Assembly: GCF_900302455.1 (NCBI RefSeq)
Contig: NZ_ONZG01000003.1
Coordinates: forward strand, 248,001 to 312,000
DNA: 64,000 nt
Source of the DNA: Falsiruegeria mediterranea M17
GTDB lineage: Bacteria; Pseudomonadota; Alphaproteobacteria; Rhodobacterales; Rhodobacteraceae
Direction of reading: 5' to 3'
Shown: in pieces, positions 5,446-35,792 of the stretch
Layout of the letters: each line of letters opens with the position of its first letter
How positions within the stretch are numbered: the stretch's first letter is position 1
Notes under the pieces: model-generated
The model's input: only the letters and a program-made list of their open reading frames with translations
What the model was told of the DNA's origin: nothing
Database searches by the model: none
Position numbers and translations under genes: made by a program

Positions 5446-5477
5446 ACCTTTCTTCACGACTTCGACGGGATAACCTC

Positions 5478-6020: not shown

Positions 6021-6856
6021 CCAAAGCGACAATCCTCATTCCGGCGCATAACGAGGCAGCCGTCATTGGACGCACATTGTGGTTTTTGTCGCGCGGCCTG
6101 AACCTGGCCGAATTCCAGGTCATCGTGATTGCCAACGGTTGTTCGGACGCGACCGCAGCGCGTGCGCGTGCCGCTTTGCCGCAAGCGCAGGTCATCGAAT
6201 GTGATACGGCGGGCAAGTGTCACGCCATGAACCTTGGCTATGCCGCGGCGGACAAGAGCGCGCCGGTTGTCTGCATGGACGCGGATTTGGACGTGACTGC
6301 GGAATCTGTTGCGGCCTTGTCCGTTGCTGTGACTGCCGAAGGGACAGATGCGGCCTGCGGTCGGATGGATGTCGACACCACCCATGCCTCGACTGCGGTG
6401 CGGGCATTTTACCAGGGATGGCGGTCGAACCCCTATTTCGACCGTGGCAAGTTTGGTGGGCTCTTCGCCTTGTCGGCCAAAGGGGCCGAGCAGGTGTTTC
6501 CGCTGCCTGATGTCACGGCTGATGACGAATACATCCGTCGCAGCTTTTGTGACGCGCAGATCGCAACGGTATCAAGGTGCATTTTCGTGGCGCGATCGCC
6601 CACGAAGCTCAGCGCGCTTGTGAGCATCCGCCGCCGCAGTCTGCGGGGTGCGCGAGAGATCTCCAAGTTGGGGTTGCCAAGCCCCGAACGCACCAGCCGG
6701 TTCCGGATGTTGGGTCGGGCGTTCATATCTCCGCGCGATGCGTTGCCAATTGCCATTTTCCTGGCCGTTGTCACCTGGGTGCGATTGGTCTTGCTCTTTG
6801 AAACGTCTCAAAGCCTTCGCTGGGAACGAGACCTGACCTCACGGGTGGTGCGATAA
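6017..6856 (+). CDS. glycosyltransferase family 2
   Basis: This 279-residue protein starts with I-L-I-P-A-H-N-E-A and contains V-I-A-N-G-C-S-D-A-T. The DxD-like metal motif is in V-C-M-D-A-D-L-D, and a D-D-E-Y segment further on is in the position of the ED base. One hydrophobic segment lies near the C terminus (around residues 245-262). It likely adds a sugar during assembly of the exopolysaccharide repeat unit. It overlaps the PssE-like gene by ATGA and is followed two bases later by the chain-length gene. Confidence 0.85.
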   Translation: MTKATILIPAHNEAAVIGRTLWFLSRGLNLAEFQVIVIANGCSDATAARARAALPQAQVIECDTAGKCHAMNLGYAAADKSAPVVCMDADLDVTAESVAALSVAVTAEGTDAACGRMDVDTTHASTAVRAFYQGWRSNPYFDRGKFGGLFALSAKGAEQVFPLPDVTADDEYIRRSFCDAQIATVSRCIFVARSPTKLSALVSIRRRSLRGAREISKLGLPSPERTSRFRMLGRAFISPRDALPIAIFLAVVTWVRLVLLFETSQSLRWERDLTSRVVR

Positions 6857-6858
6857 CC

Positions 6859-8919
6859 ATGGCGCTTGCAGCTCTCTCTCAGCCTGCGGGTGACGATCCG
6901 ATCATGCAGGCCCAACCGTCTACCGAGATCCCGGAACAGAACCCGCTGGTCTCTGGCGCACGGGCAATGCGTGGTCGCTGGAAACGCACCATCGCTGGGG
7001 CTGGGGGACTCGGGTTGATTGGCGCTTGCCTTGGGCTGCTTGCTGGCGATCAGCTTTACGAAGCGCAGGCCATCTTGCGCGTTTTTCCCCAGGAAACCAA
7101 TATTCTCTATTCCACTGGTGAGGCTTCGGTCCTCAAAACCTTTGACAGTTTCGTCAAGGCCGAGACCAGTTATGTTGCCTCGCACCCGGTCATGTCACGG
7201 GCGCATGCGACCATCACAAGCTCTGACCGCGAAACCGCTGAAGGTATGCGGGTTTCGGATTTGTCGGGCTCAATCGAAGTTCGGCGTTCAGACAGCCTGA
7301 TTGTCCTGAAAACCAAAAGCCGCGAACCCGACTTTGCCAAAGCGAAGCTGGACGCCGTTGTGTCGTCGTATCTGAACCTGCAAACCGAGGCCGAGGTGTC
7401 GCGCTCTGCCGTGCGCCTGTCTGAATTGAACGCGCGGGAACTTGAGTTGGTGGACCGATTGGACGACCTGCGCGCGACTCAGCTTGAGGTCGGCGGTGAG
7501 TACGGAATGAACGCTCTAGCCAAGGCACATGTGGAAAAAATCGCCCAGATTGATGCCCTTGCGGCCCGCAAGTCCGAAGTGGCGGCAACCTTGATTGCGC
7601 TGGAAGCCAACAACGGCGGCGCCTCGGCCGATACGTCTGACGAAGAGATCATGCGCGCGACGCTTCTGGATCGGGCGATGGCGGACCTGAACTTTGAACG
7701 GGCCAAATTGATGAGCCAGCTGGCCGGCCTGCGTGCCGGATACCAAGGTCAGAACAATTCCCGGTTCGAATTGAAGGTCAAAGCCAAGCTGGACGAGATC
7801 GAAGTAATCGAAACCGCGCTTGCCGACCGGCGCGAGCAGATCAAGGTGCTGGGTCAGACCGGTGCACTGACCGATGCGTCGGCCGAAGGGCCAGACACCA
7901 GCCTGGCCGACATTCGCGCGCTGTTCACCAAAGTCGAAGGTCAACTGGACGTCGCCCGAAAAGAAGCGTGGGATCTCAACCGCCGCCGGATCGAGCTAGA
8001 CCAGGTTGAACAGGATATCGACCAGGCGCAAAGGCTGCTGGAAGAGACGCGCCGCGCGCTTGAGGTGATCCGCCTGGAATCCGGGCGTGCGTTGCCGGGT
8101 TACGCTGTGCTGATGTCTCCTGCCTCGCTGCCTACCAGCCCGGTCAGTGACAGCCGCAAGATGCTTGCTGCGGGTGGACTTGTCGGCGGAGTGGGCCTGG
8201 CAGTTTTGATTGCTTTGGGGTTGGGTCTGACGGATCGCAGCCTGCGCTTTGCCGAAACTCTGACGCCTGTGGAACATCGTTTGCCGGTGTTGCAGGTCTC
8301 GGATGTGGATTGCAGCGATGACTGTGCCGCTGACCTGCTGCGCAATGAACTGCAACTGCGCCCCTTGCGGCAGCCGCGACTGGTGGGCAAGGCACCGATC
8401 ATCGCAGTCACCTGCGTCACTGATCGCTCCACCACAGAATTGGCGCGTGCCTTGGCGGCCAGCTGCGCGCGCGCTCGGATGAAAGCGCTGTTTGTCGAAG
8501 CTGACATTGGCGTGTCCTCGACCTCGGTCCAGGCAAACCGTTGGCGCAGCGTTCTGAGCCACGAGGGAGGTCAGCCGCGGGCCATGCGTGGCAGCACCGG
8601 TGCCTGGGAGCTGCGCAAGGGGATCGACAGCGACATTGATGACTCGTCTGTTTCCGCCCCGATGGTCCGCACCGCGCTCGACAGTCTGGTGGAAGACTTT
8701 GACGTCATCGTGGTGTCGGCCGGAAGCTTGACCAACCGTCTGGCATGCCAGTTTGTCCTGTCCGCAAGCGATGTGGGTGTTCTGGCAATGCACCCCTCGG
8801 ATCCCAAAGATGCAGTTTTGTCCCAAATCGACCGGCTCGACACATTGCCGCGCAATGGAAGCGTCGCCGTGATGCGCAACGCGCTGTCAAAAGACCCTTG
8901 GCTCAGTGTTCGGACTTGA
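6859..8919 (+). CDS. Wzz/Wzc-like chain-length protein with a degenerate BY-kinase domain
   Basis: The 686-residue protein has a short cytoplasmic start, a membrane segment near residues 45-62, a long periplasmic region rich in coiled coil (about 170-420), a second membrane segment near 435-455, and a cytoplasmic ATPase-like domain. This is the layout of polysaccharide co-polymerases fused to bacterial tyrosine kinases. The kinase motifs are eroded. At the Walker A position (about 515-525) the sequence is C-V-T-D-R-S-T-T with no G-K-S/T. Walker A' reads L-F-V-E-A-D, Walker B reads V-I-V-V-S-A-G, and no tyrosine cluster ends the protein. It probably regulates chain length or scaffolds the assembly complex without phosphorylating. 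Confidence 0.85.
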   Translation: MALAALSQPAGDDPIMQAQPSTEIPEQNPLVSGARAMRGRWKRTIAGAGGLGLIGACLGLLAGDQLYEAQAILRVFPQETNILYSTGEASVLKTFDSFVKAETSYVASHPVMSRAHATITSSDRETAEGMRVSDLSGSIEVRRSDSLIVLKTKSREPDFAKAKLDAVVSSYLNLQTEAEVSRSAVRLSELNARELELVDRLDDLRATQLEVGGEYGMNALAKAHVEKIAQIDALAARKSEVAATLIALEANNGGASADTSDEEIMRATLLDRAMADLNFERAKLMSQLAGLRAGYQGQNNSRFELKVKAKLDEIEVIETALADRREQIKVLGQTGALTDASAEGPDTSLADIRALFTKVEGQLDVARKEAWDLNRRRIELDQVEQDIDQAQRLLEETRRALEVIRLESGRALPGYAVLMSPASLPTSPVSDSRKMLAAGGLVGGVGLAVLIALGLGLTDRSLRFAETLTPVEHRLPVLQVSDVDCSDDCAADLLRNELQLRPLRQPRLVGKAPIIAVTCVTDRSTTELARALAASCARARMKALFVEADIGVSSTSVQANRWRSVLSHEGGQPRAMRGSTGAWELRKGIDSDIDDSSVSAPMVRTALDSLVEDFDVIVVSAGSLTNRLACQFVLSASDVGVLAMHPSDPKDAVLSQIDRLDTLPRNGSVAVMRNALSKDPWLSVRT

Positions 8920-8943
8920 TGCCTTGCACAACAGGAGATCGCC

Positions 8944-9588
8944 ATGACCATGACCTCACTTGCACCGACCAAACGTCGCCGCCTGTTGCCAAAGCTCAAC
9001 CCTAAACGGGTGCTGGATCTCGGGTTGGTGGTTCTCATCCTGCTGGCAGTGTGGCCAGTGCTGGCAATCGTCGCGGGCCTTGTGGCGATCACGTCTCGCG
9101 GGCCGGTGTTTTTTGTGCAGACCCGCGTCGGTCTTTACGGCCGATCGTTCCGGATGTTGAAGTTTCGCTCGATGTACCAGGACGCCGAGGCGCGTCGTGA
9201 CCAGCTGATTGAACAAAGCGAACGCGATGGTGTCTGCTTCAAGCTCAAAAGCGATCCGCGCGTCACTCCGGTGGGCCAATTCATTCGCCGTTGGTCGCTG
9301 GATGAGCTGCCACAGCTGTTCAATGTGCTGAAGGGGGACATGTCACTGGTCGGTCCGCGCCCCGCGCTGCCGCAAGAGGTTGCGGCTTACCCGGCCAAGG
9401 CACATGGGCGTCACAGCGTATTGCCTGGCATCACGGGGCTTTGGCAGGTGTCCGGACGTGCCGACATCGGTTTTGACGAGATGATCGCGCTGGATCTGGC
9501 CTATGCCCGGCATGTGTCGGTATTGACCGATATCCAAATCATGTTTCGCACGTTTCGTGCCGTCTTGAGTGGCCGGGGTGCTTATTGA
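8944..9588 (+). CDS. undecaprenyl-phosphate sugar-1-phosphate transferase (ExoY/WbaP C-terminal type)
   Basis: The 214-residue protein has one membrane segment near residues 20-42 followed by the catalytic domain of the bacterial sugar transferase family. Its motifs are K-F-R-S-M, W-S-L-D-E-L-P-Q-L-x-N-V-L-K-G-D-M-S-L-V-G-P-R-P and P-G-I-T-G-L-W-Q. It starts the pathway by moving a sugar-1-phosphate from a UDP sugar to undecaprenyl phosphate at the inner membrane. A GGAG precedes the ATG. The length matches monotopic family members that lack the N-terminal four-helix domain. It is the last enzyme gene in this cluster. Confidence 0.92.
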   Translation: MTMTSLAPTKRRRLLPKLNPKRVLDLGLVVLILLAVWPVLAIVAGLVAITSRGPVFFVQTRVGLYGRSFRMLKFRSMYQDAEARRDQLIEQSERDGVCFKLKSDPRVTPVGQFIRRWSLDELPQLFNVLKGDMSLVGPRPALPQEVAAYPAKAHGRHSVLPGITGLWQVSGRADIGFDEMIALDLAYARHVSVLTDIQIMFRTFRAVLSGRGAY

Positions 9589-9713
9589 GCGCAGTGGTAT
9601 GATTCCGGCGAACTGGCCCTTGCGGCTGCATCATGAGGCAATCCGCAAGCGGGATTTCGCCGGGCGTTTTCCCGCTTATTGAAGACAGCCGTGGGACCCA
9701 ATAGGTCAGGGGC

Positions 9714-9851
9714 ATGAGCAACGAATCCCACACCGCGACCCCGCCTTCAAACGGTCTGGACAAGACCCTGATCACCTTTGCCGTCTTGCTGGCGTCTTTG
9801 GGGATCATTGCGGTATTCAGCACATTGCTGAGCGTCTGGGTCGTCTTCTGA
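9714..9851 (+). CDS. 45-residue single-pass membrane peptide
   Basis: The frame ATG 9714 to TGA 9849-9851 encodes a 45-residue peptide. A polar, proline-containing start (residues 1-17) is followed by one strongly hydrophobic helix from about residue 18 to the end. GGTCAGGGGC precedes the ATG as a possible ribosome site. It lies 125 bp after the sugar transferase and converges with the GlxA-type gene. Hairpin-forming sequence (CTTGCGG with CCGCAAG, 9618-9648) separates it from the operon. No family was recognised. It may be a small membrane protein or a chance frame; the hydrophobic composition favours the former. Confidence 0.45.
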   Translation: MSNESHTATPPSNGLDKTLITFAVLLASLGIIAVFSTLLSVWVVF

Positions 9852-9875
9852 AACTCTAATTTCTGTCCTTGGACC

Positions 9876-10874
9876 TTATGCGCTGCGTGCCTCATTTGCA
9901 GTGGCAAAAGCCTGACGGCGTAGCGTACGTGGGCTCGAACCCAGTTCCTTGCGGCACCAATAGCTGAGGTTGGTGAGCGAGCTGAATCCGGTCGCGATCA
10001 CGATTTCGGGCAGTGACAGGCTGGAATGTATCATCAGTTGATGCGCCCGTTCGATCCGCAGGTTGCGGTACGCAACCAAGGGCGTGGTGTCGGTCTTTTC
10101 CTGGAACCGCCGCTCCAGCTTGCGGGTTGAGACGCCCACCTGACGGGCCAGATCGCGCACCCGCTTGGGCTCTTCGATGTGGTCTTGCATCAGGTCCAGA
10201 ATGCGCGCGATCAGGGCGTCGCCCTCGGCGCGTTGTTTCAAGTGCAGGGCGACCTTGCTGCGGGTGCGCTCGGATGGATGCGACAAGCCCAGATATTCGG
10301 CCAGGGCGCCTGCTATGAATTGCCCGTGATCGTCCCGGATCAAGTCAATGAACAGGGTCAGCGCGGCAAAGGGGCTGGTGGCGCTGTGCAAGGCGTTCGA
10401 ATGGGCGGTGTGTCCGCCACCCTGGGCCGGGGTCAGGTGCTCTTCTTCCGCAGCGGCCAGAAAATTGGGGTGCACGGCGATCTGGTGGTTATCACGCATG
10501 CCGGTTTCGCCCAGCAGGAACACGGCGCCGCCCACCAACACCGTGCGCGGGGCCAGACGGATGATGCGTTGCACCTTGTGCCGGTCGCTGTCGGAGACCT
10601 GCCAGCGGCTGTGAATGTCGCCCAGAAACACCACCGTTCGGCGGCTCCAGCGGCGGGGATCCTGATGATGCGGCTCGGACAGATGCCGCACGGACAGGCT
10701 GTATCCGCCGTCAGTCAGCAACTCGTTGGCGGCGGTGAACATGTCCTCGATCATCCGGGTTCCAGCAATCGGCGCGCCGTCGGGCAGCAGGATATCGATG
10801 TCGTGCAAGGGTGTCGTGCCCGCAGGGGCAAGGGTGCATTGAGCGGTGTCTGAAACCGGATTGAAAAAGGTCAT
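9876..10874 (-). CDS. GlxA-family transcriptional regulator (DJ-1-like + AraC HTH)
   Basis: The 332-residue protein has an N-terminal DJ-1/PfpI-like sensing domain (about 1-190) and a C-terminal AraC-type double helix-turn-helix (about 225-325). The HTH part includes V-R-D-L-A-R-Q-V-G-V-S-T-R-K-L-E-R-R-F and G-F-S-S-L-T-N-L-S-Y-W. Members often control catabolism of glycine betaine, carnitine or choline derivatives. AGGAGGAGA precedes the ATG. It lies downstream of gcvP on the same strand, but a strong hairpin at 10940-10965 lies between them, so it is probably expressed independently. Confidence 0.85.
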   Translation of the reverse strand: MTFFNPVSDTAQCTLAPAGTTPLHDIDILLPDGAPIAGTRMIEDMFTAANELLTDGGYSLSVRHLSEPHHQDPRRWSRRTVVFLGDIHSRWQVSDSDRHKVQRIIRLAPRTVLVGGAVFLLGETGMRDNHQIAVHPNFLAAAEEEHLTPAQGGGHTAHSNALHSATSPFAALTLFIDLIRDDHGQFIAGALAEYLGLSHPSERTRSKVALHLKQRAEGDALIARILDLMQDHIEEPKRVRDLARQVGVSTRKLERRFQEKTDTTPLVAYRNLRIERAHQLMIHSSLSLPEIVIATGFSSLTNLSYWCRKELGSSPRTLRRQAFATANEARSA

Positions 10875-10939
10875 GCCTGTCTCCTCCTGGTGATGGATCG
10901 CGTCAGTCTTGGGGGCACCCTGAAAAAAGGGGAGGGTGT

Positions 10940-10965
10940 GCCCTGCCGAGATATCCCGGCAGGGC
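10940..10965 (-). terminator. intrinsic terminator of the gcv genes
   Basis: A 9-bp GC-rich stem (GCCCTGCCG with CGGCAGGGC, loop of eight) lies 27 bp after the gcvP stop. On the minus strand a run of six T follows eleven bases later. This fits an intrinsic terminator that separates gcvP from the GlxA-type regulator. Confidence 0.65.
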
Positions 10966-10991
10966 TGGTTGGTTTGGTGACCCGAGTTGGA

Positions 10992-13844
10992 TCAGGCGTC
11001 GTCTTCGTAGTCCGACATGGGCGGGCAGGTGCAGATCAGGTTGCGGTCGCCATAGGCGTTGTCGACCCGGTTGACGACCGGCCAGTATTTGTCGACGCCC
11101 AGGTTGCCCGGAGGGAAACACGCCTGCTCGCGGGTGTAGGGACGATCCCATTCACCCACCAGATCACGCACCGTGTGCGGCGCGTTCTTGAGCGGGTTGT
11201 TTTCCGCGTCGATCTTGCCGTCGATGATGTCCTGCGCTTCCTGACGGATCGAGATCATGGCATCGCAGAAGCGGTCCAGCTCTGCCATCGGTTCGGATTC
11301 CGTGGGTTCCACCATCAGCGTGCCAGCCACCGGCCAGGACATGGTCGGGGCGTGGAAGCCCGAGTCCACCAGACGCTTGGCAACATCGTCCACAGAGACG
11401 TGGGCTTCGTCGTTCAGCGGGCGGGTGTCCAGGATGCATTCATGCGCAACACGGCCCGTTTCCGAGGTGTAGAGGATCGGATAGGAATCCTTCAGACGCG
11501 CCGCGATGTAGTTGGCATTCAGGATCGCCACTTTGGTCGCTTGCGTCAGACCTGCACCACCCATCAGCAGCACATAGGCCCACGAGACAGGAAGGATCGA
11601 AGGCGAGCCGAAGGGCGCCGCAGAAACCGGACCCACGGCGGTGCCGTATTCCGGGTGACCCGGCAGGTGTTCGGTCAGGTGCGCCTTGACGCCGATCGGA
11701 CCCATGCCGGGGCCGCCACCGCCATGCGGGATGCAGAAGGTCTTGTGCAGGTTCAGGTGGCTGACGTCGCCGCCAATGTCACCCGGACGCGACAGACCCA
11801 CCATGGCGTTCATGTTGGCCCCGTCGATATAGACCTGACCGCCATGCTCGTGCGTGATGTCACAGACCTCTTGCACGGTGGTCTCGAAGACGCCGTGGGT
11901 CGAGGGGTATGTGATCATGCAGCCTGCCAGCTCGTTCGAGTGCTTTTCAGCCTTCTCGCGGAAATCCACCAGATCGATGTTGCCGTTGTCATCCGCTTTG
12001 ATCGGAACAACCTTCCAGCCCACCATCTGCGCCGACGCCGGGTTGGTGCCGTGTGCCGATGTCGGGATCAGGCAGACGTTCCGGTGCCCTTCGCCACGGG
12101 CGAAGTGGTAGTTGCGGATGGTCAGCAGGCCCGCGTATTCACCCTGCGCACCCGAGTTGGGCTGCTGGGAAATCGCGTCATAGCCGGTGATCTGGCACAG
12201 CTTGTCGTTCAGATCATCGATCATCTGATGATAGCCCTGCGCCTGATCTTCGGGGCAGAAGGGGTGCAGATTACCAAACTCGGGCCAGGTGACCGGGATC
12301 ATCTCGATCGTGGCGTTCAGCTTCATGGTGCAGGACCCCAGCGGGATCATGGCACGGTCCAGCGCCAGATCGCGGTCCGCCAGGCGGCGCATGTAGCGGG
12401 TGATCTCGGCCTCGGCCCGGTTCTTGTGGAAGATCGGGTGGGTCAGATACTCGCTTTCACGCAGCGCATAGTCGGGCAGGCGATAGTGCTTTTCCGAGCT
12501 GTCGTCTTTGCGGTCGATGCCAAAGGCACCCCAGACGGCCTCGATGGTTTCCGGGCGGGTCTGTTCGTCGAGCGAGATACCAACCTTCGTCTCACCAACC
12601 TTGCGCAGGTTGACGCCACGGGCCACTGCGGCCTCCATCACGACGTTCTGCAGGTGGCCGACTTCGACGGTGATGGTGTCAAAGAACACTTCGGGCTCAA
12701 CCGCGAAACCGGCGGCTTCCAGACCATTGGCCAGACGCGAGGTCTTGCGGTGCACCGACTGGGCAATCGCTTTGATGCCGTCAGGGCCGTGGTACACGGC
12801 GTACATCGACGCGATCACGGCCAGCAGCGCCTGAGCGGTACAGACGTTCGAGTTCGCTTTCTCGCGGCGGATGTGCTGCTCGCGGGTTTGCAGCGCCAGG
12901 CGATAGGCCTTGTTGCCACGGCTGTCGATGGACACACCGATGATACGGCCCGGCATCGCGCGCTTCAGCTTGTCGGTGGTTGCCATGTAAGCGGCGTGGG
13001 GGCCACCATATCCCATGGGAACGCCGAACCGCTGGGTCGAGCCGATGGCGATGTCCGCGCCCATTTCACCGGGCGATTTCAGCAGTGCCAGCGACAGGAT
13101 GTCGGCGGCAACAATGGCGATGGCCTTGTTTTCATGCAGCGCGGCGATCTGATCGGTGAAGTCCTGCACGTGGCCGTTGGTGCCCGGATACTGGAAGATC
13201 GCGCCAAAGACGGCACCGGCTTCCAGCTCGGCAGGGTCGGCAACCTGCACGTCGATGCCCAGAGGCTCGGCGCGGGTTTTGATCACGGCGATGGTTTGGG
13301 CGTGGCAGTTTTTGTCGACAAAGAAGGCCGCGTTGTTGGCTTTGGACCGGCCGCCACGCTTGGCCATAGCCATGGCTTCGGCTGCTGCGGTGGCTTCGTC
13401 CAGAAGCGAAGCGTTGGCTACATCCAGCCCGGTCAGGTCGCTGACCATGGTCTGGAAGTTCAACAGCGCCTCAAGACGGCCTTGGGAAATCTCGGGCTGG
13501 TAGGGGGTATAGGCCGTGTACCACGCCGGGTTTTCCAGAATGTTGCGCAGGATCGGCGCTGGCGTCGTGGTGCCGTAATAGCCCTGACCGATCAGCGAGG
13601 TCAGAACCTTGTTCTTGCTCGCGATCTCTTTCATGTGGAAGAGCGCGTCGCGCTCGGTCATCGCCGGACCCCAATCGAGCGCCTCTTTCTGGCGGATCGC
13701 AGGGGGGACGGTGGCGTCGATCAGCTCGTCCAGGGTTTTGAAGCCGATCACCTTGAGCATATCGCGCATTTCGGTGGGCGACGGGCCGATGTGGCGGCGA
13801 TTGGCGAAATCGTAAGCTTCGTAATCGGTGAGTTTGAAGGCCAT
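10992..13844 (-). CDS. gcvP: glycine dehydrogenase (decarboxylating), P protein
   Basis: The start is taken at 13844, where AGGAGCGCTGAA precedes M-A-F-K-L-T-D; a longer frame begins with a non-homologous 20-residue extension. The 950-residue single-chain P protein decarboxylates glycine with pyridoxal phosphate and passes the aminomethyl group to the lipoyl arm of GcvH. The PLP lysine lies in [12 protein letters not shown], followed by a G-G-G-G-P-G loop. Both homologous halves of the family are present at full length. It is preceded by gcvH with a hairpin in the 68-bp gap. Confidence 0.97.
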
Positions 13845-25697: not shown

Positions 25698-25712
25698 ACC
25701 AATTGGATTGGT
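25698..25712. promoter_or_regulatory. inverted repeat in the divergent oxidoreductase / sugar-kinase promoter
   Basis: ACCAAT-TGG-ATTGGT forms a perfect 6-3-6 palindrome in the 169-bp gap between the molybdopterin oxidoreductase and the sugar kinase gene. It may be an operator. No regulator gene lies beside it. Confidence 0.3.
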
Positions 25713-25779
25713 TTGGTTGGCTTGTGGCAGGTCAGCACGGAATCCGTTATGGCACATTGACCGCAAAGCAGGAGCAGAC

Positions 25780-26646
25780 ATGGATACCTCGCCCGAATGG
25801 ATCGCAGTTGATTGGACGCCTGTGCGCAGGCGGGCTTGGGCCATGCGGGGGGATACGGTTCTGGACACGGTCACGCAGGTTGGCCCGGTCGAGGCTGCGC
25901 GCCCGGCTGAGGCACTTTTGGGCCTGATCTCGGTGTTCTTGTCGGACGCGCCGGTTGATGTGATGACCTGTGGCACGCTTGGGCCTGTGGGGGCTTCGGT
26001 GCCCTGCGAACCTTTGTCAGACGGGGCATGGTCGGTGGATATCGGTGATGTCAGAGTTTGGCTGCGCGGCGTCTCGGGCCTGCGGCAGAAGCAACCCGTC
26101 GATATGATGCAGGGTGATGAGACCCGCGTGGCCGGGTTTCTGGCGTTGAATACGGATTGGGACGGGGTGATCTGTTTGCCCGGCGAACACAGCCGCTGGA
26201 TCCACGTCAGCGCTGGAGAGATCGTGAGCTTTCAGACCTTCATGACCGGCGTGGTTGCGGCCACCTTGCTGGACCGTGCTGTGCCTGATGCGCGCGCGGC
26301 CCGTGTGGATGGCGTGACCTTTTCTGAAGCCGTGGGCGATGCCATCGCCAAGCCTGAGCGGGTCATGGCGCGCGTTCATTCCATTCATGCTGAGGCGGTG
26401 CTGGATGGGTTGCAGCCCGAGATCGCCCGCGCGCGCTTGTTGGGTGGGTTGATCGGGTCGGAACTGGCGGCGGCGCGCCCGTTTTGGCTGGGTCAGCAAC
26501 TGGCCGTGGTGGGCGAGGGGGAGTTGGCGCAGCTCTATGTCGATGCGCTGGGCGCCCAGGGTGCCCCGGCGGCGCTGGCGGATGAACCGCGCGTGACGCG
26601 GGCCGGGTTGGCGACCGCTTGGCGCACTTTGGCTGCGGCCCCTTGA
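25780..26646 (+). CDS. 2-dehydro-3-deoxygalactonokinase family protein
   Basis: ATG 25780 follows AGGAG at a normal distance. The 288-residue protein matches the DgoK family, with I-A-V-D-W at the start and F-L-A-L-N-T-D-W-D-G-V-I-C-L-P-G-E-H-S-R-W-I in the middle, which is the typical H-S-K/R-W region. DgoK phosphorylates 2-dehydro-3-deoxygalactonate in the De Ley-Doudoroff pathway. No partner aldolase gene is adjacent, so the physiological role is open. The first residues V-D-W-T-P in place of the usual V-D-W-G-T may matter for phosphate binding. Confidence 0.75.
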   Translation: MDTSPEWIAVDWTPVRRRAWAMRGDTVLDTVTQVGPVEAARPAEALLGLISVFLSDAPVDVMTCGTLGPVGASVPCEPLSDGAWSVDIGDVRVWLRGVSGLRQKQPVDMMQGDETRVAGFLALNTDWDGVICLPGEHSRWIHVSAGEIVSFQTFMTGVVAATLLDRAVPDARAARVDGVTFSEAVGDAIAKPERVMARVHSIHAEAVLDGLQPEIARARLLGGLIGSELAAARPFWLGQQLAVVGEGELAQLYVDALGAQGAPAALADEPRVTRAGLATAWRTLAAAP

Positions 26647-28757: not shown

Positions 28758-31700
28758 TCAGCAGCACCCGCAGTCGTGATGATGGTGCTCATGCCCGCAG
28801 GAATGTTCGTGCGCGGGCGCAAAGTCGCCCACCTCGGACAGCACCTGATCCAAGGCCCAAAGGATCATCTCGACGTCTTCTGCCTCGATCGTCAGCGGCG
28901 GGCGGATTTTCAGGATGTTGTCCTTGGGTCCCTCGCTGCCGATCAGAATGCGGTGATCACGCATCCTGTTCTTGACGTATTTACAGATCTCTGTGCCCTC
29001 GGACCCGTCCGGATTGATCAGCTCAACGCCCAGGAACAGACCCATCCCGCGCACGTCTCCGACGCAGCCATGTTTGGCTTCAAGCGCCTTGAGCCCTGTC
29101 ATCAGCTTGTCGCCCATCTGCTGCGCATTGTCCTGCAGTCCTTCGTCATCGACAATGTCCAGCACCTCTTTGCCAATCCGGCACGATAGGGTGGACCCAC
29201 CAAAGGTCGAAAAGAACTCGATCCCGTTGTCAAAGCTCTGCGCGATCTCTTTGGTGGTGACCAGTACACCCAGAGGGTGCCCGTTGCCGATGGGTTTGCC
29301 CAAAACCACGATATCGGGCAGGGCGCCTTGGTGTTCGAACCCGAAATAGTGTTCTCCCAGACGGCCGAGGCCAGTTTGCACCTCATCTGCGATGCAGACC
29401 CCGCCAGCGGCGCGGATCTTCTCATAAACCGCAGGCAGATAGCCCTTGGGCGGGATGATTTGACCACCGACCGAGGGGAAGGTTTCGGCGATGAACCCAG
29501 CCAATCCCTGGCCCCGTTCTTGCAGCGCGGCAATGGCGGGATCAACGAGATCGGCAAACTTCCGGGCACGATCGCCATCATCGCGCTTGAAGCTGCCACG
29601 ATAGTCATCGGCCACCTCAACCAGTTCGACCCAATCCGCCTGACCGATGCCACCCGGCTTGTTGAACTTGTAGGCCGAGATTGCGACAGCCGCATTGGTG
29701 TTGCCGTGATAGCCATGATCCGGCGTCACGATCCCCTTGTTGCCGGTGTGCGCCCGCGCCAGCCGCAAGGCCAGTTCATTTGCCTCGGTGCCTGAGTTGA
29801 CGAAGAAGCAGACCTCCAGATGTTCAGGCATCTTCGACAGCACCTTGTCGGCAAAGGCAGTTTGTGCCGGATGCAGATAGCGGGTGTTCGAGTTCATGCG
29901 TTTGAGCTGATCCGCTGCGACCGCCTGAATGCGTGGGTGTGCGTGGCCCACATGGGGAACGTTGTTGTAGGCGTCCAGATAGGGCCGCCCCCATTCGTCG
30001 AACAGATGGTGTTTCCAGCCCCGCATTAGCATGACCGGATCGTCATAGGTCAAGCTTAGGTTGCCGCCGAAATGATCCTGACGCCCTTGCAGCACGCCAC
30101 CCTTGTCGGTCGGCTGATAGAACACCTTGTCATCGGGCAGATTCAGCATAGGCGCCGGGTTGGGGCAGACCTTGTGCCACAGGTACATCTCGTCGGGGTC
30201 GCCCACGCCGGGCCAGTCGGCCTCCATCCCGTCGGTGGTCAGGGCCAGCTGGAAATGAACATGCGGAGCCCAACCGCCGTTTTGCGTGTGATCGCCAAGC
30301 CGGGCAAAGGCCGCGCCGCGCGCCACCGGGTCGCCGGGTTTAAGACGGTCACAAACCTCGGGGTCCAAATGACCATAAAGTGTGTAGAACGCGTCACCTT
30401 CCGGTGTTTCGTGATACAGGATCACGACGCCGCCATAATCCAGATGCCCAGTGCGGTTCTCGACCACCTCTACCCGCGCGCTCATCGGTGCATAAAGCGG
30501 CGTTCCCGCAGGGGCAAAGACATCCACTGCCAGATGTACGGTGCGTCGGTCGCTGGCCTTCCAGGGGCCCTTGCGGAACCCAGGTTCGGCATAGATCAGG
30601 CGCGGTTCGCTGTAGTAACCCAGCCACCAATCAGGGCCAAATTCCTCACCCACGCGCGCGGCTTCCTCCAGCGGCATGTTAAACGGGTTCTGCGGCCAAG
30701 TAGAGTTCTCGACCGAGAGCGAACCCATCGGCACATCGCTTAGATCGCGACCAAAGAGGTCGGCAAACTCGCCCCGGTGTTCCTCCAGATAGGCGTGAAC
30801 CCGGTCGGCACCATCGGTCACGGGGAGGTAGCAGGCCGCGCGCAGGCGCGCCGACATCAGGCCACCGTTGACCGCATCATTCTCAAGGAACCGCCACGCG
30901 GGCGCCTGAGAGATGGTCACGTAGGGATCTTCGGGGTTCTCCACCGCCATCAGGGTCGAATTCACCACCGACACCGCCAGCCGCATTCGCAGCAATGGCC
31001 AGATCAGATCGACCTCTTGGGCGCTCAGCCGTCCGGCCGCGTGATAGCCTTGGACCAGCCCGGCCAGTGCTGCCTCGGGGTTGGGATGATCCAGCACGAT
31101 ATAGGCGCCACAGATGGCCAGATCGCAGATCCGTGGCGCGGCGAACATGTCGCCCAGATCAATCAGACCCGATACCTGCTTGGGCTCACCCAATGCGCCC
31201 TCGACCAGGATGTTGTAGTCATTGGCATCGTTGTGGATCGCTTGTTTTGGTAGGGTCTCCAACTCGGGCTTGATCGCTGCAAAGGCCTGGACGATGTCCG
31301 CCAACAGCGCCCGCCGTGTCGGATCTTCGACTGCATCCAGTTTGTTGGCGATCCAACCGCCCTGCATCAGATCCCACTTGAATGCCCGCGCAAGGCCGTC
31401 GTGCTCGAACCCCTTGAGCGCCCGTCCGGTTGCGCCCAGAACCCGACCCAGTTTGACGATCAGATCCAGCGGCTTTGGGTTGGACTTGGCGTAACACTCG
31501 CCCGGCAGCCGTTCGAGCAGCCAGGCAAGACGGGGTGCGCCTGTTTCATCGGCAATCTCAGGTAGAAAAGCGCCATCGATTGTTGGGAACACCTTGGGGA
31601 ACGGCAGGCCAGGTGCCGCCGCAGCGATGTGCTCCAAAGCCTTGACCTGCATGTCGACAAGATCGGGCGCACAGCCCGCGCGCATGACTTTCAACACATA

Positions 31701-31826
31701 GTCCTGCCCGTTGGTGGCGCGCGCCAGAAAGTTCAGGTCATATTCGCCATCCAGCCGCTCCAGTTTTGCCTCATGACCCCAAACATTGCGCAGTGCAGCT
31801 GCCCAGAATTCCAAATCCACGCTCAT
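28758..31826 (-). CDS. three-domain fusion: APH-like kinase + M23 peptidase-like + class III aminotransferase-like lyase
   Basis: This 1022-residue protein has three enzyme modules. Residues 1-340 are an APH/choline-kinase-like kinase with the catalytic H-N-D-A-N-D-Y-N (198-205) and I-D-L-G-D (222-226). Residues 400-565 are an M23-type domain with H-L-A-V-D (431-435), Y-G-H (486) and H-V-H (522-524), so the metal ligands are intact. Residues 580-1000 are a class III aminotransferase fold with D814 and PLP lysine K844 in G-K-P-I-G-N-G. Human relatives of the outer modules are hydroxylysine kinase and the phospholyases AGXT2L1/2. It likely phosphorylates a hydroxylated amine, then eliminates phosphate. 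The last 17 residues are a His/Cys tail. AAGGAAGG precedes the ATG. Confidence 0.85.
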   Translation of the reverse strand: MSVDLEFWAAALRNVWGHEAKLERLDGEYDLNFLARATNGQDYVLKVMRAGCAPDLVDMQVKALEHIAAAAPGLPFPKVFPTIDGAFLPEIADETGAPRLAWLLERLPGECYAKSNPKPLDLIVKLGRVLGATGRALKGFEHDGLARAFKWDLMQGGWIANKLDAVEDPTRRALLADIVQAFAAIKPELETLPKQAIHNDANDYNILVEGALGEPKQVSGLIDLGDMFAAPRICDLAICGAYIVLDHPNPEAALAGLVQGYHAAGRLSAQEVDLIWPLLRMRLAVSVVNSTLMAVENPEDPYVTISQAPAWRFLENDAVNGGLMSARLRAACYLPVTDGADRVHAYLEEHRGEFADLFGRDLSDVPMGSLSVENSTWPQNPFNMPLEEAARVGEEFGPDWWLGYYSEPRLIYAEPGFRKGPWKASDRRTVHLAVDVFAPAGTPLYAPMSARVEVVENRTGHLDYGGVVILYHETPEGDAFYTLYGHLDPEVCDRLKPGDPVARGAAFARLGDHTQNGGWAPHVHFQLALTTDGMEADWPGVGDPDEMYLWHKVCPNPAPMLNLPDDKVFYQPTDKGGVLQGRQDHFGGNLSLTYDDPVMLMRGWKHHLFDEWGRPYLDAYNNVPHVGHAHPRIQAVAADQLKRMNSNTRYLHPAQTAFADKVLSKMPEHLEVCFFVNSGTEANELALRLARAHTGNKGIVTPDHGYHGNTNAAVAISAYKFNKPGGIGQADWVELVEVADDYRGSFKRDDGDRARKFADLVDPAIAALQERGQGLAGFIAETFPSVGGQIIPPKGYLPAVYEKIRAAGGVCIADEVQTGLGRLGEHYFGFEHQGALPDIVVLGKPIGNGHPLGVLVTTKEIAQSFDNGIEFFSTFGGSTLSCRIGKEVLDIVDDEGLQDNAQQMGDKLMTGLKALEAKHGCVGDVRGMGLFLGVELINPDGSEGTEICKYVKNRMRDHRILIGSEGPKDNILKIRPPLTIEAEDVEMILWALDQVLSEVGDFAPAHEHSCGHEHHHHDCGCC

Positions 31827-31913: not shown

Positions 31914-32786
31914 TCAGTCCAACGCCTTCAGACGCTTGAACAGAGACGAGGTATCCCAGCGACCACCGCCCATCTTCTGCACGTCCTTGTAGAACTGATC
32001 GACCAGTGCCGTGACCGGCAGCGAGGCGCCGTTCACCTCGGCCTCATCGAGGCAGATACCCAGATCCTTGCGCATCCAGTCGACGGCAAAGCCATAGTCG
32101 AAATGATCGTCAAGCATCGTCTCATGCCGGTTCACCATCTGCCAGCTGCCTGCGGCACCCTGGCTGATCACCTCGACCACCGCGCGACCGTCCAGCCCCG
32201 CTTTCTCGGCAAAATGCAGCGCCTCGGACAGGCCCTGAACAAGACCGGCGATGGCGATCTGATTGGCCATCTTGCAGCGCTGACCGGCGCCCGCCTCGCC
32301 AATGCGGCGGCAGATCTTGGAATAGACCTCCATCACGGGCCGGGCGGTGTCGTATGCTGTTTGGTCACCGCCACACATGATCGACAGCACGCCGTTTTCG
32401 GCCCCGGCCTGACCGCCCGAGATCGGGGCGTCGACAAAGGACAGGCCAGCCGCAGAGGCGATATCACCCAATTCGCTTGTGACCTTGGCCGAAACTGTGG
32501 TGTGATCGACAAAGATCGCACCCGCTTTCATGGCCGCAAATGCGCCGTCTGCACCGGTGCAGACCATGCGCAGGTCATCGTCGTTGCCCACGCAGGCCAT
32601 GACCAGATCGGCGTCCTTCACGGCCTCAGCCGGGGTGACCCCTAATGCGCCACCATGTTCGGCGACCCAGGCTTCGGCCTTGGCGGTGGTGCGGTTGTAG
32701 ACGGTGACGGAATGTCCGGCGGCTTGCAGGTGGCCCGCCATGGGATAGCCCATGACCCCCAGGCCCAGGAATGCGATGTTTGCCAT
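31914..32786 (-). CDS. NAD(P)-dependent beta-hydroxyacid dehydrogenase (3-hydroxyisobutyrate dehydrogenase-like)
   Basis: The start at 32786 gives M-A-N-I-A-F-L-G-L-G-V-M-G-Y-P-M, the Rossmann G-x-G-x-x-G motif of the family. The 290-residue protein has the substrate motif V-D-A-P-I-S-G-G-Q-A-G-A and the catalytic lysine region G-Q-R-C-K-M-A-N-Q. Family members oxidise 3-hydroxyisobutyrate, tartronate semialdehyde-type or related acids. The exact substrate cannot be told, and no valine-degradation gene is adjacent. Confidence 0.88.
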   Translation of the reverse strand: MANIAFLGLGVMGYPMAGHLQAAGHSVTVYNRTTAKAEAWVAEHGGALGVTPAEAVKDADLVMACVGNDDDLRMVCTGADGAFAAMKAGAIFVDHTTVSAKVTSELGDIASAAGLSFVDAPISGGQAGAENGVLSIMCGGDQTAYDTARPVMEVYSKICRRIGEAGAGQRCKMANQIAIAGLVQGLSEALHFAEKAGLDGRAVVEVISQGAAGSWQMVNRHETMLDDHFDYGFAVDWMRKDLGICLDEAEVNGASLPVTALVDQFYKDVQKMGGGRWDTSSLFKRLKALD

Positions 32787-32882
32787 AGTTTTGATCCTCT
32801 CGGCTGTGCGGTCCCTCTCCCCAAGGGTCGCTCTCGCGCAGAGACAAATCAAAGCTGGCGGCGCAGGGCAACCCCCGTTTGT

Positions 32883-33272
32883 TCAACTGGTGCCGCCCAG
32901 GTCCTGCAAGATCGGGCAATCGGGGCGATCATCGCCCGCGCAGCAGTCCACCAGATGGGTCAGCGTATCGCGCATGGCCTGCAGGTCGGCGATCTTTGCC
33001 TCGATCTTGGCTAGATGCGATCTTGCCACCCGTTTGACATCAGAACTGGCGCGGGTTTCATCCTCGTACAGCGCCAACAGGGTTCGGCAATCCTCGATGG
33101 TGAAGCCAAGGGCGCGGGCGCGGCCCAGAAAGGCCAGCTTATGCAGGTCCTGGTCACGAAACTGGCGATAGCCGTTGTCGCTGCGTCCGGGAACAACGAG
33201 GCCGATGTCCTCATAGTAGCGGATGGTCTTGGGGGGCAGGCCGGTTTGTGCGGCGACGTCTCCGATGTTCAT
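32883..33272 (-). CDS. cueR: Cu(I)-responsive MerR-family regulator
   Basis: The start at 33272 gives M-N-I-G-D-V-A-A-Q-T-G, the typical MerR winged-helix start, ten bases after the copA stop. The 129-residue protein has a long dimer helix and the copper-binding C-terminal loop C-C-A-G-D-D-R-P-D-C-P-I-L, as in HmrR/CueR. It should activate copA by untwisting a promoter with a 19-bp spacer, and such a promoter is present at 35793-35823. It is encoded in the operon it controls. Confidence 0.93.
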   Translation of the reverse strand: MNIGDVAAQTGLPPKTIRYYEDIGLVVPGRSDNGYRQFRDQDLHKLAFLGRARALGFTIEDCRTLLALYEDETRASSDVKRVARSHLAKIEAKIADLQAMRDTLTHLVDCCAGDDRPDCPILQDLGGTS

Positions 33273-33282
33273 GGATGACCTC

Positions 33283-35760
33283 TCATTCTGCTGGTGCGGG
33301 CTTGAGTGTGGCTGCGGTTTGGGTCGCAGGCACAGAGCGTGCCACAAAGCGCAGCCGCAGCGCGTTGGTCAGGACAAAGACGCTCGACAGGGCCATGGCA
33401 CCTGCTGCAAGCATGGGTGACAGCAGTGGCCCACCAAACGGATAGAGCACCCCGGCCGCGACTGGGATCAGCAGCGTGTTGTACCCAAAAGCCCAGCCCA
33501 GGTTCTGGCGGATGTTGCGCAAGGTGTGGCGCGAGATTTCATAGGCGTTGGTCACGCCCGTAACCTCGCCCGACATCAGCACCACATCCGCGGCCTCGAT
33601 CGCCACATCCGTGCCGGTTCCGATGGCGATGCCCACATCGGCTGAGGCCAACGCGGGCGCGTCATTGATCCCGTCGCCAACAAAAGCCACCGCACCAAAG
33701 CGGGCGCGCAGATCGGTGAGAGCGTCGACCTTGCCGCCGGGCATAACCTCGGCCACCACATGATCGATCTGCAGCTCGGCGGCGATGGCCTGAGCGGTTG
33801 CTGCATTGTCGCCGGTGATCATGGCAACGGTCAGCCCTTGGTCGTGCAGAGCCGCAATGGCGTCGTGGCTTTGCGTTTTGATCGGATCAGCCACGGCCAA
33901 TGCGGCGGCCGCCGTGCCGTCGATGGCCACATAAAGCGGCGTTTTACCCTTTGCCGCCAGCTTTTGCGCCTGGGGCTCAAGCGCTGAGACGTCGATGTTC
34001 TGCCGCGTCATCAGGCGATCTGCACCAATCACGACCGAGCGACCTTCGACCTGAGCCCTCAGGCCAAGTCCTGTGAGCGATTCAAATGCGGTCACATCGG
34101 GCAGCGGGCCAGGAGCGGCTTGTGTGATGGCGCGCGCGATTGGGTGTTCCGACGACGCCTCGGCAGCGGCGGCGAGGCGTAGAACCTCGTCACGATCAAA
34201 TCCTTCGGCCGCGATCAGATCAGTCAGCTCGGGGCGTCCCATCGTCAACGTGCCGGTCTTGTCAAAGGCCACGACGCGGGTGTCCTGCAAGGCTTGCAGC
34301 GCGTCGCCCTTGCGGAACAGCACCCCCATTTCAGCGGCGCGCCCAGTGCCCACCATGATCGAGGTCGGTGTGGCCAGACCCATGGCGCAGGGGCAGGCGA
34401 TGATCAGTACGGACACCCCGGCCACCAGCGCCATCGACAGCGCCGGGTCGGGGCCAAAGATCAGCCATACCACCACGGTCAGCGCAGCGGTCGCCAGAAC
34501 GGCAGGCACAAACCATGCGGTGATGCGGTCAACCATTCCCTGGATCGGCAGTTTGGCGCCTTGTGCCTGTTCCACCATGGCGATGATCTGGGCCAATACC
34601 GTGTCTGCGCCAACCTTGGTCGCGGTGACACGCAAAGCCCCGGTGCCATTCAACGTGCCACCAACGACTGTATCCCCAGCGGATTTGAGAACCGGAACAG
34701 GCTCGCCTGTGATCATGCTTTCGTCGACATAGGTCTGACCGTCCAGAACCGCTCCATCCACGGCGATGCGCTCGCCGGGGCGGACGTGCAAAAGGTCTCC
34801 GGCCCCGATTTCGGCAATGGGGCGCTCGGTGACGATTCCATCGACCTCGACCCGCGCGGTTTTGGGCTGCAGGCCGATGAGCTTGCGAATGGCTGCGCCT
34901 GTACGCCCCTTGGCGCGCGCCTCGAGCAGGCGACCAAAGAGGATCAGGACCACGATCACCGCCGCCGCCTCAAAATAGACGTTGGCGGTGCCTGCGGGCA
35001 GCAGGTCTGGTGCAAATGTTGAAAGAACCGAGAACCCATAGGCCGCAAGCGTCCCGATCGCGACGAGGGCGTTCATGTCCGGAGTGCCACGGAAGAGGGC
35101 AGGCAGGCCTTTGGCATAGAACATGCGGCCCGGACCGATCAGAATGACGCTGGTCAAGGCAAACTGGATCAGCTGGCTGGTCTGCTGCCCAATGGTGGCG
35201 TGGACCCAGTGGTGAAAGGCAGGGATCATGTGCCCACCCATTTCCAGCACAAAGACAGGCAGCGCCAAAAGGGCCGCAAAGAGGGTTTGGCGGGCAAGCG
35301 TTTGGATTTCCTCGGCCTTGCGGTCCATGGCCTCGGGCGTTTCGCTTGGTGGTGTGGCTGCATAACCAGCTTGGGTGACGGTTGCTGCCAGAGTGCTTGG
35401 GTCGGTCGTGCCGGTTGCGAAGGTTACGCTTGCGGTTTCCGTGGCCAGGTTGACATTGGCCAAGATTACACCGGGTGCTGCCAAGAGGGCGCGCTCGACC
35501 CGACCGACACAGGAGGCACAATTGAGCCCTTCGATGATCAGTTGGGTGTCTTGGGTCGCGACAGGATAGCCTTTGTTCGACAGGGCCGCAGCGATGTCGA
35601 CAAGTGGCGCGTCATGGCTGACATGCGCCGTTTCAGAGGCAAAGTTCACTTGCGCCTGATCGACGCCGGGTAGAGCGTTCAAAGCAGACTCGACCTTGCC
35701 CACACATGACGCGCAGCCCATGCCGGTGATCTGGAGTGTTGTGGTGGTGTGATGCGACAT
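33283..35760 (-). CDS. copA: P1B-type Cu+ exporting ATPase
   Basis: The start at ATG 35760 fits the position of the upstream promoter; a TTG four codons earlier is a weak alternative. The 825-residue pump has two N-terminal HMA metal-binding domains (G-M-G-C-A-S-C and G-L-N-C-A-S-C) and eight membrane segments, with the transport motif A-C-P-C-A-M-G. D-K-T-G-T-L-T is phosphorylated, and the soluble domain ends at [10 protein letters not shown]. It exports Cu+ across the inner membrane. cueR follows in the same operon. Confidence 0.95.
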
Positions 35761-35792
35761 ATTCGAGGCCAAACATTTCTTGAGTCGTGCCT

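What the first reader, a model, noticed from the sequence alone, without database searches (positions are those of the whole stretch)
28758..31826. Triple-domain kinase + M23-type + aminotransferase-like fusion with a His/Cys tail
Seen: three intact enzyme modules in one 1022-residue chain. The kinase motif, the M23 metal ligands (H-x3-D, Y-G-H, H-x-H) and the PLP lysine all remain. The last 17 residues hold seven histidines or more and four cysteines, ideal for metal binding. Known: the human kinase HYKK (AGPHD1) and phospholyases AGXT2L1/AGXT2L2 act on hydroxylysine and phosphoethanolamine, and are homologous to the outer modules. Inference: kinase and lyase act in sequence on a hydroxy-amine. 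The M23 module sits in a cytosolic protein with no signal peptide, so it may be a metal-dependent hydrolase that frees the substrate from a peptide. The tail may load its metal.
Basis: partly seen in the sequence, partly recalled or inferred. Interest (0 to 1): 0.8.

Follow-up and report, generated by a model that had tools for sequence, protein, structure and literature searches.

The report
Fused kinase-peptidase-lyase for hydroxylysine breakdown
A marine bacterium carries one long protein that joins three enzymes and probably breaks down hydroxylysine, an amino acid typical of animal collagen; the fusion is already catalogued without a function, and the gene neighbours of its relatives now suggest one.

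Summary
On the minus strand, 28758-31826, one 1022-aa protein holds an APH kinase, an M23 module with all its metal and catalytic residues, a class-III PLP lyase and a His/Cys tail. The architecture is already catalogued, without function, as NCBIfam PRK06148. The lyase is closest to human ethanolamine-phosphate phospho-lyase.

New here is a substrate case from relatives. In several genomes kinase-(M23-)lyase fusions sit beside a beta-galactosidase, an MGH1-like glycosidase, a sugar ABC transporter and/or L-piperidine-6-carboxylate dehydrogenase. That dehydrogenase co-occurs with the fusion in two families: 18/29 against 53/266, and 19/20 against 70/131 (no phylogenetic correction). The set fits breakdown of collagen's glucosyl-galactosyl-hydroxylysine: remove sugars, phosphorylate hydroxylysine, eliminate phosphate and ammonia, oxidise.

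The M23 site is all-or-none: 147 of 157 fusions keep five of five residues, ten keep at most two. A cytosolic peptidase for small hydroxylysyl peptides is my best guess, not shown. The tail marks one clade (44 of 81 rows); the other 37 lack it, so it is not part of the core mechanism. No enzyme activity was tested.

The parts
28758..31826 (-). whole gene, 1022-aa kinase-M23-lyase fusion (P0001), member of NCBIfam PRK06148
31023..31754 (-). APH-type kinase module, Pfam stretch residues 25-268
   Evidence: catalytic residues in the K-M-L set
30132..30641 (-). M23 module as used here, residues 396-565 (Pfam stretch 430-528; H431, D435, H486, H522, H524)
28839..30023 (-). class-III PLP phospholyase-type module, Pfam stretch residues 602-996, PLP Lys K844
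28761..28811 (-). His/Cys tail, last 17 residues (7 His, 4 Cys); low-confidence in the model
31914..32852 (-). neighbour, 87 bp upstream on the same strand: 6-phosphogluconate/3-hydroxyisobutyrate dehydrogenase family protein; context only
   Evidence: its cluster was gene-called in 34 of 80 loci

Best explanation
The protein is most likely a cytosolic multifunctional enzyme of 5-hydroxylysine catabolism. The N-terminal APH-type module phosphorylates the 5-hydroxyl of hydroxylysine with ATP. The C-terminal PLP module removes phosphate and ammonia to give 2-aminoadipate 6-semialdehyde / piperideine-6-carboxylate, which a separate L-piperidine-6-carboxylate dehydrogenase (35 kb away in this genome) oxidises to 2-aminoadipate. 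In some relatives the same gene sits with transporters and glycosidases that could deliver hydroxylysine from the collagen disaccharide Glc-Gal-Hyl. The M23 module is probably a live zinc hydrolase that cleaves a small hydroxylysine-containing peptide, such as a hydroxylysyl-glycine fragment of collagen, before phosphorylation. The tail is a clade-specific metal-binding feature. Shown: architecture, intact motifs, family placement, gene context, co-occurrence. Inferred: substrate, reaction order, M23 activity, tail function.
For: The lyase is closest in sequence and fold to phospholyases (6tor, human ethanolamine-phosphate phospho-lyase, E 1.6e-118; 5g4i, 2.3e-88) ahead of every other PDB hit shown. 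Lyase tree: K-M-L, three K-L, the M-L and degenerate K-m-L proteins fall on one side of a branch (88 of 131 rows, SH-aLRT 98), the window among them. Context: (a) the three K-L fusions nested there (G808, G838, G822) all have a GH2-type beta-galactosidase neighbour (Pfam run on one, the others 64% and 75% identical to it); G838 also has L-piperidine-6-carboxylate dehydrogenase about 60 bp away (NF050084, 824.2 against cut-off 730), galT and galK, an MGH1-like glycosidase and a TonB receptor; (b) K-M-L of G519 and G276 lie in one-strand runs of sugar ABC transporter, MGH1-like glycosidase, LacI, K-M-L, GH42 beta-galactosidase, with the dehydrogenase 5 and 7 kb away; (c) the S. meliloti pSymB-type K-M-L cluster has amino-acid and sugar ABC transporters, a 62% identical glycosidase and an annotated beta-galactosidase; (d) G446, in the window's own branch (64% identity; branch 97), has the dehydrogenase 2.7 kb away. 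Co-occurrence: 18/29 vs 53/266 (p 4.4e-6) and 19/20 vs 70/131 (p 3.6e-4). M23: five of five residues in 147 of 157, at most two in the other ten.
Against: No activity is tested. The window's own locus has no glycosidase, piperidine-6-carboxylate dehydrogenase or solute uptake system among the ten neighbours annotated. 11 of 29 K-M-L genomes in the window's family lack a detected dehydrogenase. The co-occurrence tests are not corrected for phylogeny or genome size. The dehydrogenase of this genome lies beside a DAO-type oxidase, so it may serve lysine/pipecolate breakdown. Paralogous K-M-L with other neighbours (Lrp plus amino-acid binding protein; liv-type ABC plus N-formylglutamate amidohydrolase, the latter also in one member of the window's wider branch, L258) may have other substrates. 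The closest solved lyase acts on phosphoethanolamine. No M23 substrate is indicated directly.
Confidence: 0.68

Rival explanations
1. Same kinase-then-lyase chemistry, but on ethanolamine or another hydroxy-amine: ethanolamine to phosphoethanolamine to acetaldehyde.
For: The closest solved structures are human ethanolamine-phosphate phospho-lyase and Arthrobacter phospholyase A1RDF1. The genome has a second, stand-alone lyase + kinase + PuuC-like ALDH operon with a tripartite transporter, so the two sets may have different substrates and either could take ethanolamine. Two K-L fusions on the other side of the tree lie near genes that I read by eye as phnW/phnA (Pfam on one locus gives only class-V aminotransferase and type I phosphodiesterase).
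Against: Piperidine-6-carboxylate dehydrogenase linkage and co-occurrence and the beta-galactosidases make little sense for ethanolamine.
Confidence: 0.17
2. The M23 module is not a hydrolase here but a folded spacer or assembly domain; only kinase and lyase are catalytic.
For: One clade (PRK06149-like) keeps a full-length chain but has lost the M23 residues, and K-L fusions lack the module, so kinase-lyase function does not seem to need it.
Against: Retention is all-or-none: 147 of 157 keep all five residues (104 of these are over 50% identical to the window, so not independent); among the 43 intact proteins at 50% identity or less, 23 of 170 module positions are invariant, a share like that of the lyase (66 of 424) and above the kinase (23 of 330) (the five ligands count by construction in that subset).
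Confidence: 0.25
3. The C-terminal module is an ordinary omega- or amino-acid transaminase and the kinase is a stray fusion.
For: Annotated records name such proteins 'aminotransferase class III-fold pyridoxal phosphate-dependent enzyme'.
Against: Phospholyases outrank all other hits shown in sequence (1.6e-118 and 2.3e-88 against 7.4e-49 for the best non-phospholyase) and fold. Kinase residues K46, D200, N205, D223 and D226 are kept in 119 of 119 rows, H198 in 118.
Confidence: 0.05
4. The His/Cys tail is part of the mechanism (loads the M23 metal).
For: The M23 needs a metal, and the tail (in L048 worn) is kept in all 44 rows of its clade.
Against: 37 of 81 rows lack it, and the M23 residues are invariant in a 45-row alignment that mixes both kinds. 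The tail clade is also the clade beside a heavy-metal P-type ATPase and MerR gene, so a link to metal handling at large is as likely.
Confidence: 0.15

Closest known systems
NCBIfam NF004799 / PRK06148 (subfamily, 'hypothetical protein')
   Same: full-length match, same three modules in the same order, 1509.7 bits against cut-off 1128
   Different: the catalogue entry carries no function; the tail is not in the model (match ends at residue 1000)
NCBIfam NF004800 / PRK06149
   Same: kinase - M23-like stretch - lyase order
   Different: window scores under cut-off (681.5 < 973); the nine PRK06149-type proteins in my alignment have lost the M23 residues
Human hydroxylysine kinase HYKK/AGPHD1 with phospholyases AGXT2L1 (ETNPPL) and AGXT2L2 (PHYKPL)
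   Same: same pair of steps; lyase module 41-42% identical to 6tor in the structural alignment. That AGXT2L1/AGXT2L2 are lyases acting on phosphoethanolamine/phosphohydroxylysine was read in a passage of PMC9283133
   Different: separate proteins in humans, no M23 (recalled); HYKK itself was not compared here
M23 peptidases LytM and lysostaphin
   Same: H-x3-D, H-x-H and G-H residues; best PDB hit is 'Putative glycyl-glycine endopeptidase lytM' (E 1.9e-4)
   Different: secreted cell-wall enzymes (recalled); this one has no evident export signal and sits inside a metabolic enzyme

Membership tests
PRK06148 (NF004799) | full-length score over curated cut-off | tested here: met
   1509.7 against 1128 bits, residues 4-1000
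PRK06149 (NF004800) | score over curated cut-off | tested here: not met
   681.5 against 973
APH-type kinase | APH profile and catalytic residues (K46, H198/D200, N205, D223) | tested here: met
Hydroxylysine kinase (HYKK) | ATP-dependent phosphorylation of 5-hydroxylysine | not testable with these tools
   context only
Ammoniophospholyase (ETNPPL/PHYKPL) | closest homology to phospholyases within aminotransferase class III, PLP lysine kept | tested here: met
Ammoniophospholyase (ETNPPL/PHYKPL) | release of phosphate and ammonia from a phospho-amine | not testable with these tools
   no assay
Peptidase family M23 | H-x3-D, H-x-H and G-H residues | tested here: met
   H431, D435, H486, H522, H524
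Peptidase family M23 | export to the cell wall side (signal peptide or membrane anchor) | tested here: inconclusive
   none evident by eye; no predictor run
Peptidase family M23 | zinc-dependent peptide hydrolysis | not testable with these tools
   no assay

The most novel reading that the evidence does not exclude
The PRK06148 family is a trifunctional hydroxylysine-salvage enzyme: an M23 module turned into a cytosolic glycine-type dipeptidase frees hydroxylysine from collagen fragments such as Hyl-Gly, and the same chain phosphorylates and deaminates it. With an MGH1-like glucosidase, a beta-galactosidase and piperidine-6-carboxylate dehydrogenase it forms a bacterial pathway for collagen's Glc-Gal-Hyl. 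Where the M23 is dead, a neighbouring S58-type peptidase and a peptide transporter take over that step in some rhizobial genomes.
Probability: 0.28. Interest if true: 0.8.

Novelty: new variant of a known kind. Interest (0 to 1): 0.6.

Why it matters
A family carried as 'hypothetical protein' gains a concrete, testable substrate. Glycosylated hydroxylysine is a signature of animal collagen; how bacteria use it did not turn up in the listings of my ten searches, which cover only openly licensed papers. If right, the gene is a marker for that trait in marine and soil bacteria, and it would give the M23 peptidase fold a cytosolic metabolic role.

Tried and rejected
Literature: ten searches. I saw listings, some cut (20 of 23, 20 of 83, 19 of 20 and 15 of 25 papers), and passages of four papers (PMC8154272, PMC8626586, PMC2536512, PMC9283133). 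None that I saw treats this triple fusion or bacterial hydroxylysine kinase-lyase use. The single paper holding 'PRK06148' (listing only) is a Mycoplasma secretome paper. The founding HYKK/AGXT2L paper (Veiga-da-Cunha 2012) is not held, so whether it already noted bacterial fusions could not be checked. PMC2536512 mentions, in the passages seen, only N6-hydroxylysine in siderophore synthesis, and collagenases: not relevant.

Rejected: operon with the HIBADH-like neighbour as the source of function (found only with the tail-bearing locus). Copper/heavy-metal-locus function for the whole family (only the tail clade sits there). Plain transaminase. The single-sequence model of the M23 segment was useless (mean pLDDT 34.8). 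The full-chain model is moderate (mean pLDDT 73.0, pTM 0.59, parts of the lyase below 50) and gives no reliable domain arrangement. with the whole protein mostly returns other class-III aminotransferases; only 8 of its listed rows span the chain (L001-L008, the own copy included).

Results against my reading: 11 of 29 K-M-L genomes without the dehydrogenase. G330, just under the cut-off (1120 bits), and G017 (decayed M23) were counted as 'no K-M-L'; neither has the dehydrogenase, so counting them as K-M-L would give 18 of 31. Genomes with a lyase hit but no K-M-L also have the dehydrogenase more often (31/103, these two dropped) than genomes with no lyase hit (22/161). Most K-M-L loci held, the window's included, gave no hit to the glycosidases. 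The Lrp/binding-protein and liv/formylglutamate contexts are not specific for hydroxylysine. The S58 peptidase is missing from 4 of 9 rhizobial and from 4 of 4 other decayed-M23 loci. The pairing with 63 and 48 with 85 assumes that both drew the same 295 and 151 genomes; the handles printed agree, but not all are printed.

Full report
OBSERVATION. The gene is on the minus strand, 28758-31826, ATG to stop, 1022 aa; the plus strand of the same stretch is broken by stops. Pfam gives APH, Peptidase_M23 and Aminotran_3, all over cut-off. The chain is a full-length member of NCBIfam PRK06148, 'hypothetical protein' (1509.7 against 1128 bits), and not of PRK06149 (681.5 against 973). So the architecture is known to annotators; its function is not stated there.

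DISTRIBUTION. The own genome included, 29 of 295 genomes of the window's family are over the PRK06148 cut-off and 6 of 240 of the class sample; in one rhizobial family it is 20 of 151 ('rhizobial' rests on plasmid records of Rhizobiaceae and Phyllobacterium with the same gene order). PRK06149 is over its cut-off in 7 of 398 genomes of the phylum sample. Besides K-M-L chains I found K-L fusions without M23 (774-824 aa), one M-L protein without kinase (692 aa), about 970-aa chains with a decayed M23, and stand-alone lyases. The genome of the window also holds a separate operon with a stand-alone lyase, an APH kinase, a PuuC-like aldehyde dehydrogenase (under that model's cut-off) and a TctC-type transporter component.

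LYASE. The nearest solved structures are human ethanolamine-phosphate phospho-lyase 6tor (E 1.6e-118) and Arthrobacter phospholyase 5g4i (2.3e-88); the next hit, dialkylglycine decarboxylase, is at 7.4e-49. Foldseek on the predicted model ranks the same two first. A tree of 131 lyase domains (quick IQ-TREE, SH-aLRT) puts 88 rows on one side of a branch (98): K-M-L, three K-L, the M-L protein, decayed-M23 chains, three long-branched stand-alone lyases and one split copy (L259). The other 35 of 39 rows labelled stand-alone and eight other K-L are on the other side. The three K-L (G808, G838, G822) and the S. meliloti pSymB-type cluster share a ten-row branch (97, not resolved inside) with the M-L protein and one further K-M-L, so these K-L may have lost the M23. 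The set was hand-thinned: near copies of the window's group were capped at 22. The tree tool warns about long branches.

SUBSTRATE. I read the neighbourhoods of relatives with a simple gene caller of my own and with record annotation. In G838 the K-L gene is about 60 bp from a protein over the cut-off of the equivalog model 'L-piperidine-6-carboxylate dehydrogenase' (824.2 against 730) and next to a GH2 beta-galactosidase. Galactose-1-phosphate uridyltransferase and galactokinase genes follow, and an MGH1-like glycosidase and a TonB receptor lie on the other side. A homologous GH2 protein lies beside the K-L of G808 and G822 (64% and 75% identical). In G519 and G276 a one-strand run holds sugar ABC transporter genes, an MGH1-like glycosidase, LacI, K-M-L and a GH42 beta-galactosidase, with the dehydrogenase 5 and 7 kb away. 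The S. meliloti pSymB K-M-L has the same glycosidase (62% identical), sugar binding protein (63%) and LacI, amino-acid ABC genes in front, and an annotated beta-galactosidase behind. In the window's own branch, G446 (64% identical over the chain; placed, branch 97) has the dehydrogenase 2.7 kb away. Genome-wide, the dehydrogenase (E at most 1e-180) is found in 18 of 29 K-M-L genomes against 53 of 266 others in the window's family (Fisher p 4.4e-6), and in 19 of 20 against 70 of 131 in the rhizobial family (p 3.6e-4). These counts treat genomes as independent, which they are not, and are not corrected for genome size. In this genome the dehydrogenase is at G000:C22:315107-316531, 3.1 kb past the window's end and 35 kb from the fusion, beside a DAO-type oxidase. 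Collagen carries Glc-alpha1,2-Gal on hydroxylysine (PMC8626586, passages). AGXT2L2 acts on phosphohydroxylysine (PMC9283133, passage). That the product is 2-aminoadipate semialdehyde, in equilibrium with piperideine-6-carboxylate, is recalled. The linkage of the MGH1-like glycosidase to the alpha-1,2-glucose is inference. A glucosidase, a galactosidase, a hydroxylysine kinase-lyase and that dehydrogenase together make chemical sense for this glycoside and, to me, for little else.

OTHER CONTEXTS. Of 37 K-M-L neighbourhoods laid out (mostly rhizobial), 11 have both a divergent Lrp-type regulator in front and the same amino-acid binding protein cluster behind; annotated examples are. Four have N-formylglutamate amidohydrolase-family and liv-type transporter genes nearby, three of these an isochorismatase-family gene in the same cluster (Pfam on L254). 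Glutamine-synthetase-like genes lie near three K-M-L. Free amino-acid uptake is compatible with hydroxylysine, but the second context may mean another substrate, and one of its members (L258) falls in the window's wider branch. Ruegeria sp. TM1040 has a membrane dipeptidase and a BCCT transporter 4-7 kb away.

M23. In the K-M-L set (defined by a blastp hit to the window's M23, so partly circular) H431, D435, H486, H522 and H524 are kept in 119 of 119 rows. A wider set, defined only by kinase and lyase hits with over 480 residues before the lyase, has 157 proteins: 147 keep five of five and ten keep at most two. Nine of the ten are PRK06149-like; the other is L008. Of the 147, 104 are over 50% identical to the window, so they are few independent cases. 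Among the 43 intact proteins at 50% identity or less, 23 of 170 module positions are invariant, including E407, R409, Y412, R428, N516, W519 and Q526 beside the ligands (the ligands by selection). This looks like a working enzyme with its own pocket. A Peptidase_S58 (DmpA-type) gene (Pfam on one) lies near five of nine rhizobial decayed-M23 loci (G568, G761, G626, G773, G991; not G992 or G982, whose contigs end within 1 kb on one side, nor L237 or L271), near none of the four other decayed-M23 loci (L199, L200, L272, L273), and near one K-M-L locus, L257. A peptide-type binding protein (SBP_bac_5) accompanies it in L198; similar transporter genes were read by eye in L197 and L268. I take this as a hint that peptide hydrolysis belongs to the pathway, in chain or in trans. 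Glycine preference is an analogy with LytM-type hits and with Gly following Hyl in collagen (recalled).

TAIL. In 80 loci plus the window, the tail marks one side of a single branch (44 rows with, 37 without; support 100). The stricter count finds 42 of 80; L048 keeps a worn tail. All 42 have a HIBADH-like and/or heavy-metal P-type ATPase gene nearby; of the 38 others only L048 does. One gain or one loss explains it. The 45-row alignment that mixes both kinds keeps all five M23 residues invariant, so the tail cannot be needed for loading metal in the family at large. Whether unrelated proteins carry such a tail was not examined.

VERDICT. An already catalogued fusion whose function can now be stated as a testable claim: hydroxylysine kinase-phospholyase with a built-in zinc hydrolase.

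Noticed in passing
window 25708-26646 (+): 2-keto-3-deoxy-galactonokinase (DGOK, E 2.3e-53) about 2 kb from the fusion gene. A galactose-derived sugar acid kinase near a gene proposed for galactosyl-hydroxylysine breakdown is suggestive, but I saw none among the printed heads of the 45 largest neighbour clusters of 80 loci.
   Followed up: partly
window 32883-35772 (-): MerR regulator and heavy-metal P-type ATPase with HMA domains. Among 80 loci the ATPase is near the fusion only in the clade that carries the His/Cys tail: 37 of 42 with the tail, and L048 with a worn one.
   Followed up: partly
L210 (G000:C30:70000-89500), 4996-13056: Second kinase + lyase operon in the same genome: TctC-type transporter gene and two more read by eye as TctB/TctA, PuuC-like ALDH, stand-alone lyase, APH kinase, UPF0261. 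Its substrate is unknown.
   Followed up: partly
L225 and L229: K-L fusions of the other branch lie near genes read by eye as phnW and phnA (2-aminoethylphosphonate breakdown); Pfam on L225 gives class-V aminotransferase and type I phosphodiesterase, which fits but does not prove it.
   Followed up: partly
L207 7968-10613: 881-aa kinase chain that matches PRK06149 to position 542 and then only the second half of the lyase; may be a rearranged or mis-assembled copy. It lies near a piperidine-6-carboxylate dehydrogenase and an S58 peptidase.
   Followed up: no
L237 and L271: A K-M-L gene and a decayed-M23 gene lie close together on opposite strands (S. meliloti Ak57 near hut genes; G935), so one genome keeps both types.
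   Followed up: no
L263 3666-4976; G013:C6:230891-232072: A class-III aminotransferase-like gene lies directly upstream of the K-M-L gene in two genomes of the window's family; a candidate for 2-aminoadipate handling.
   Followed up: no
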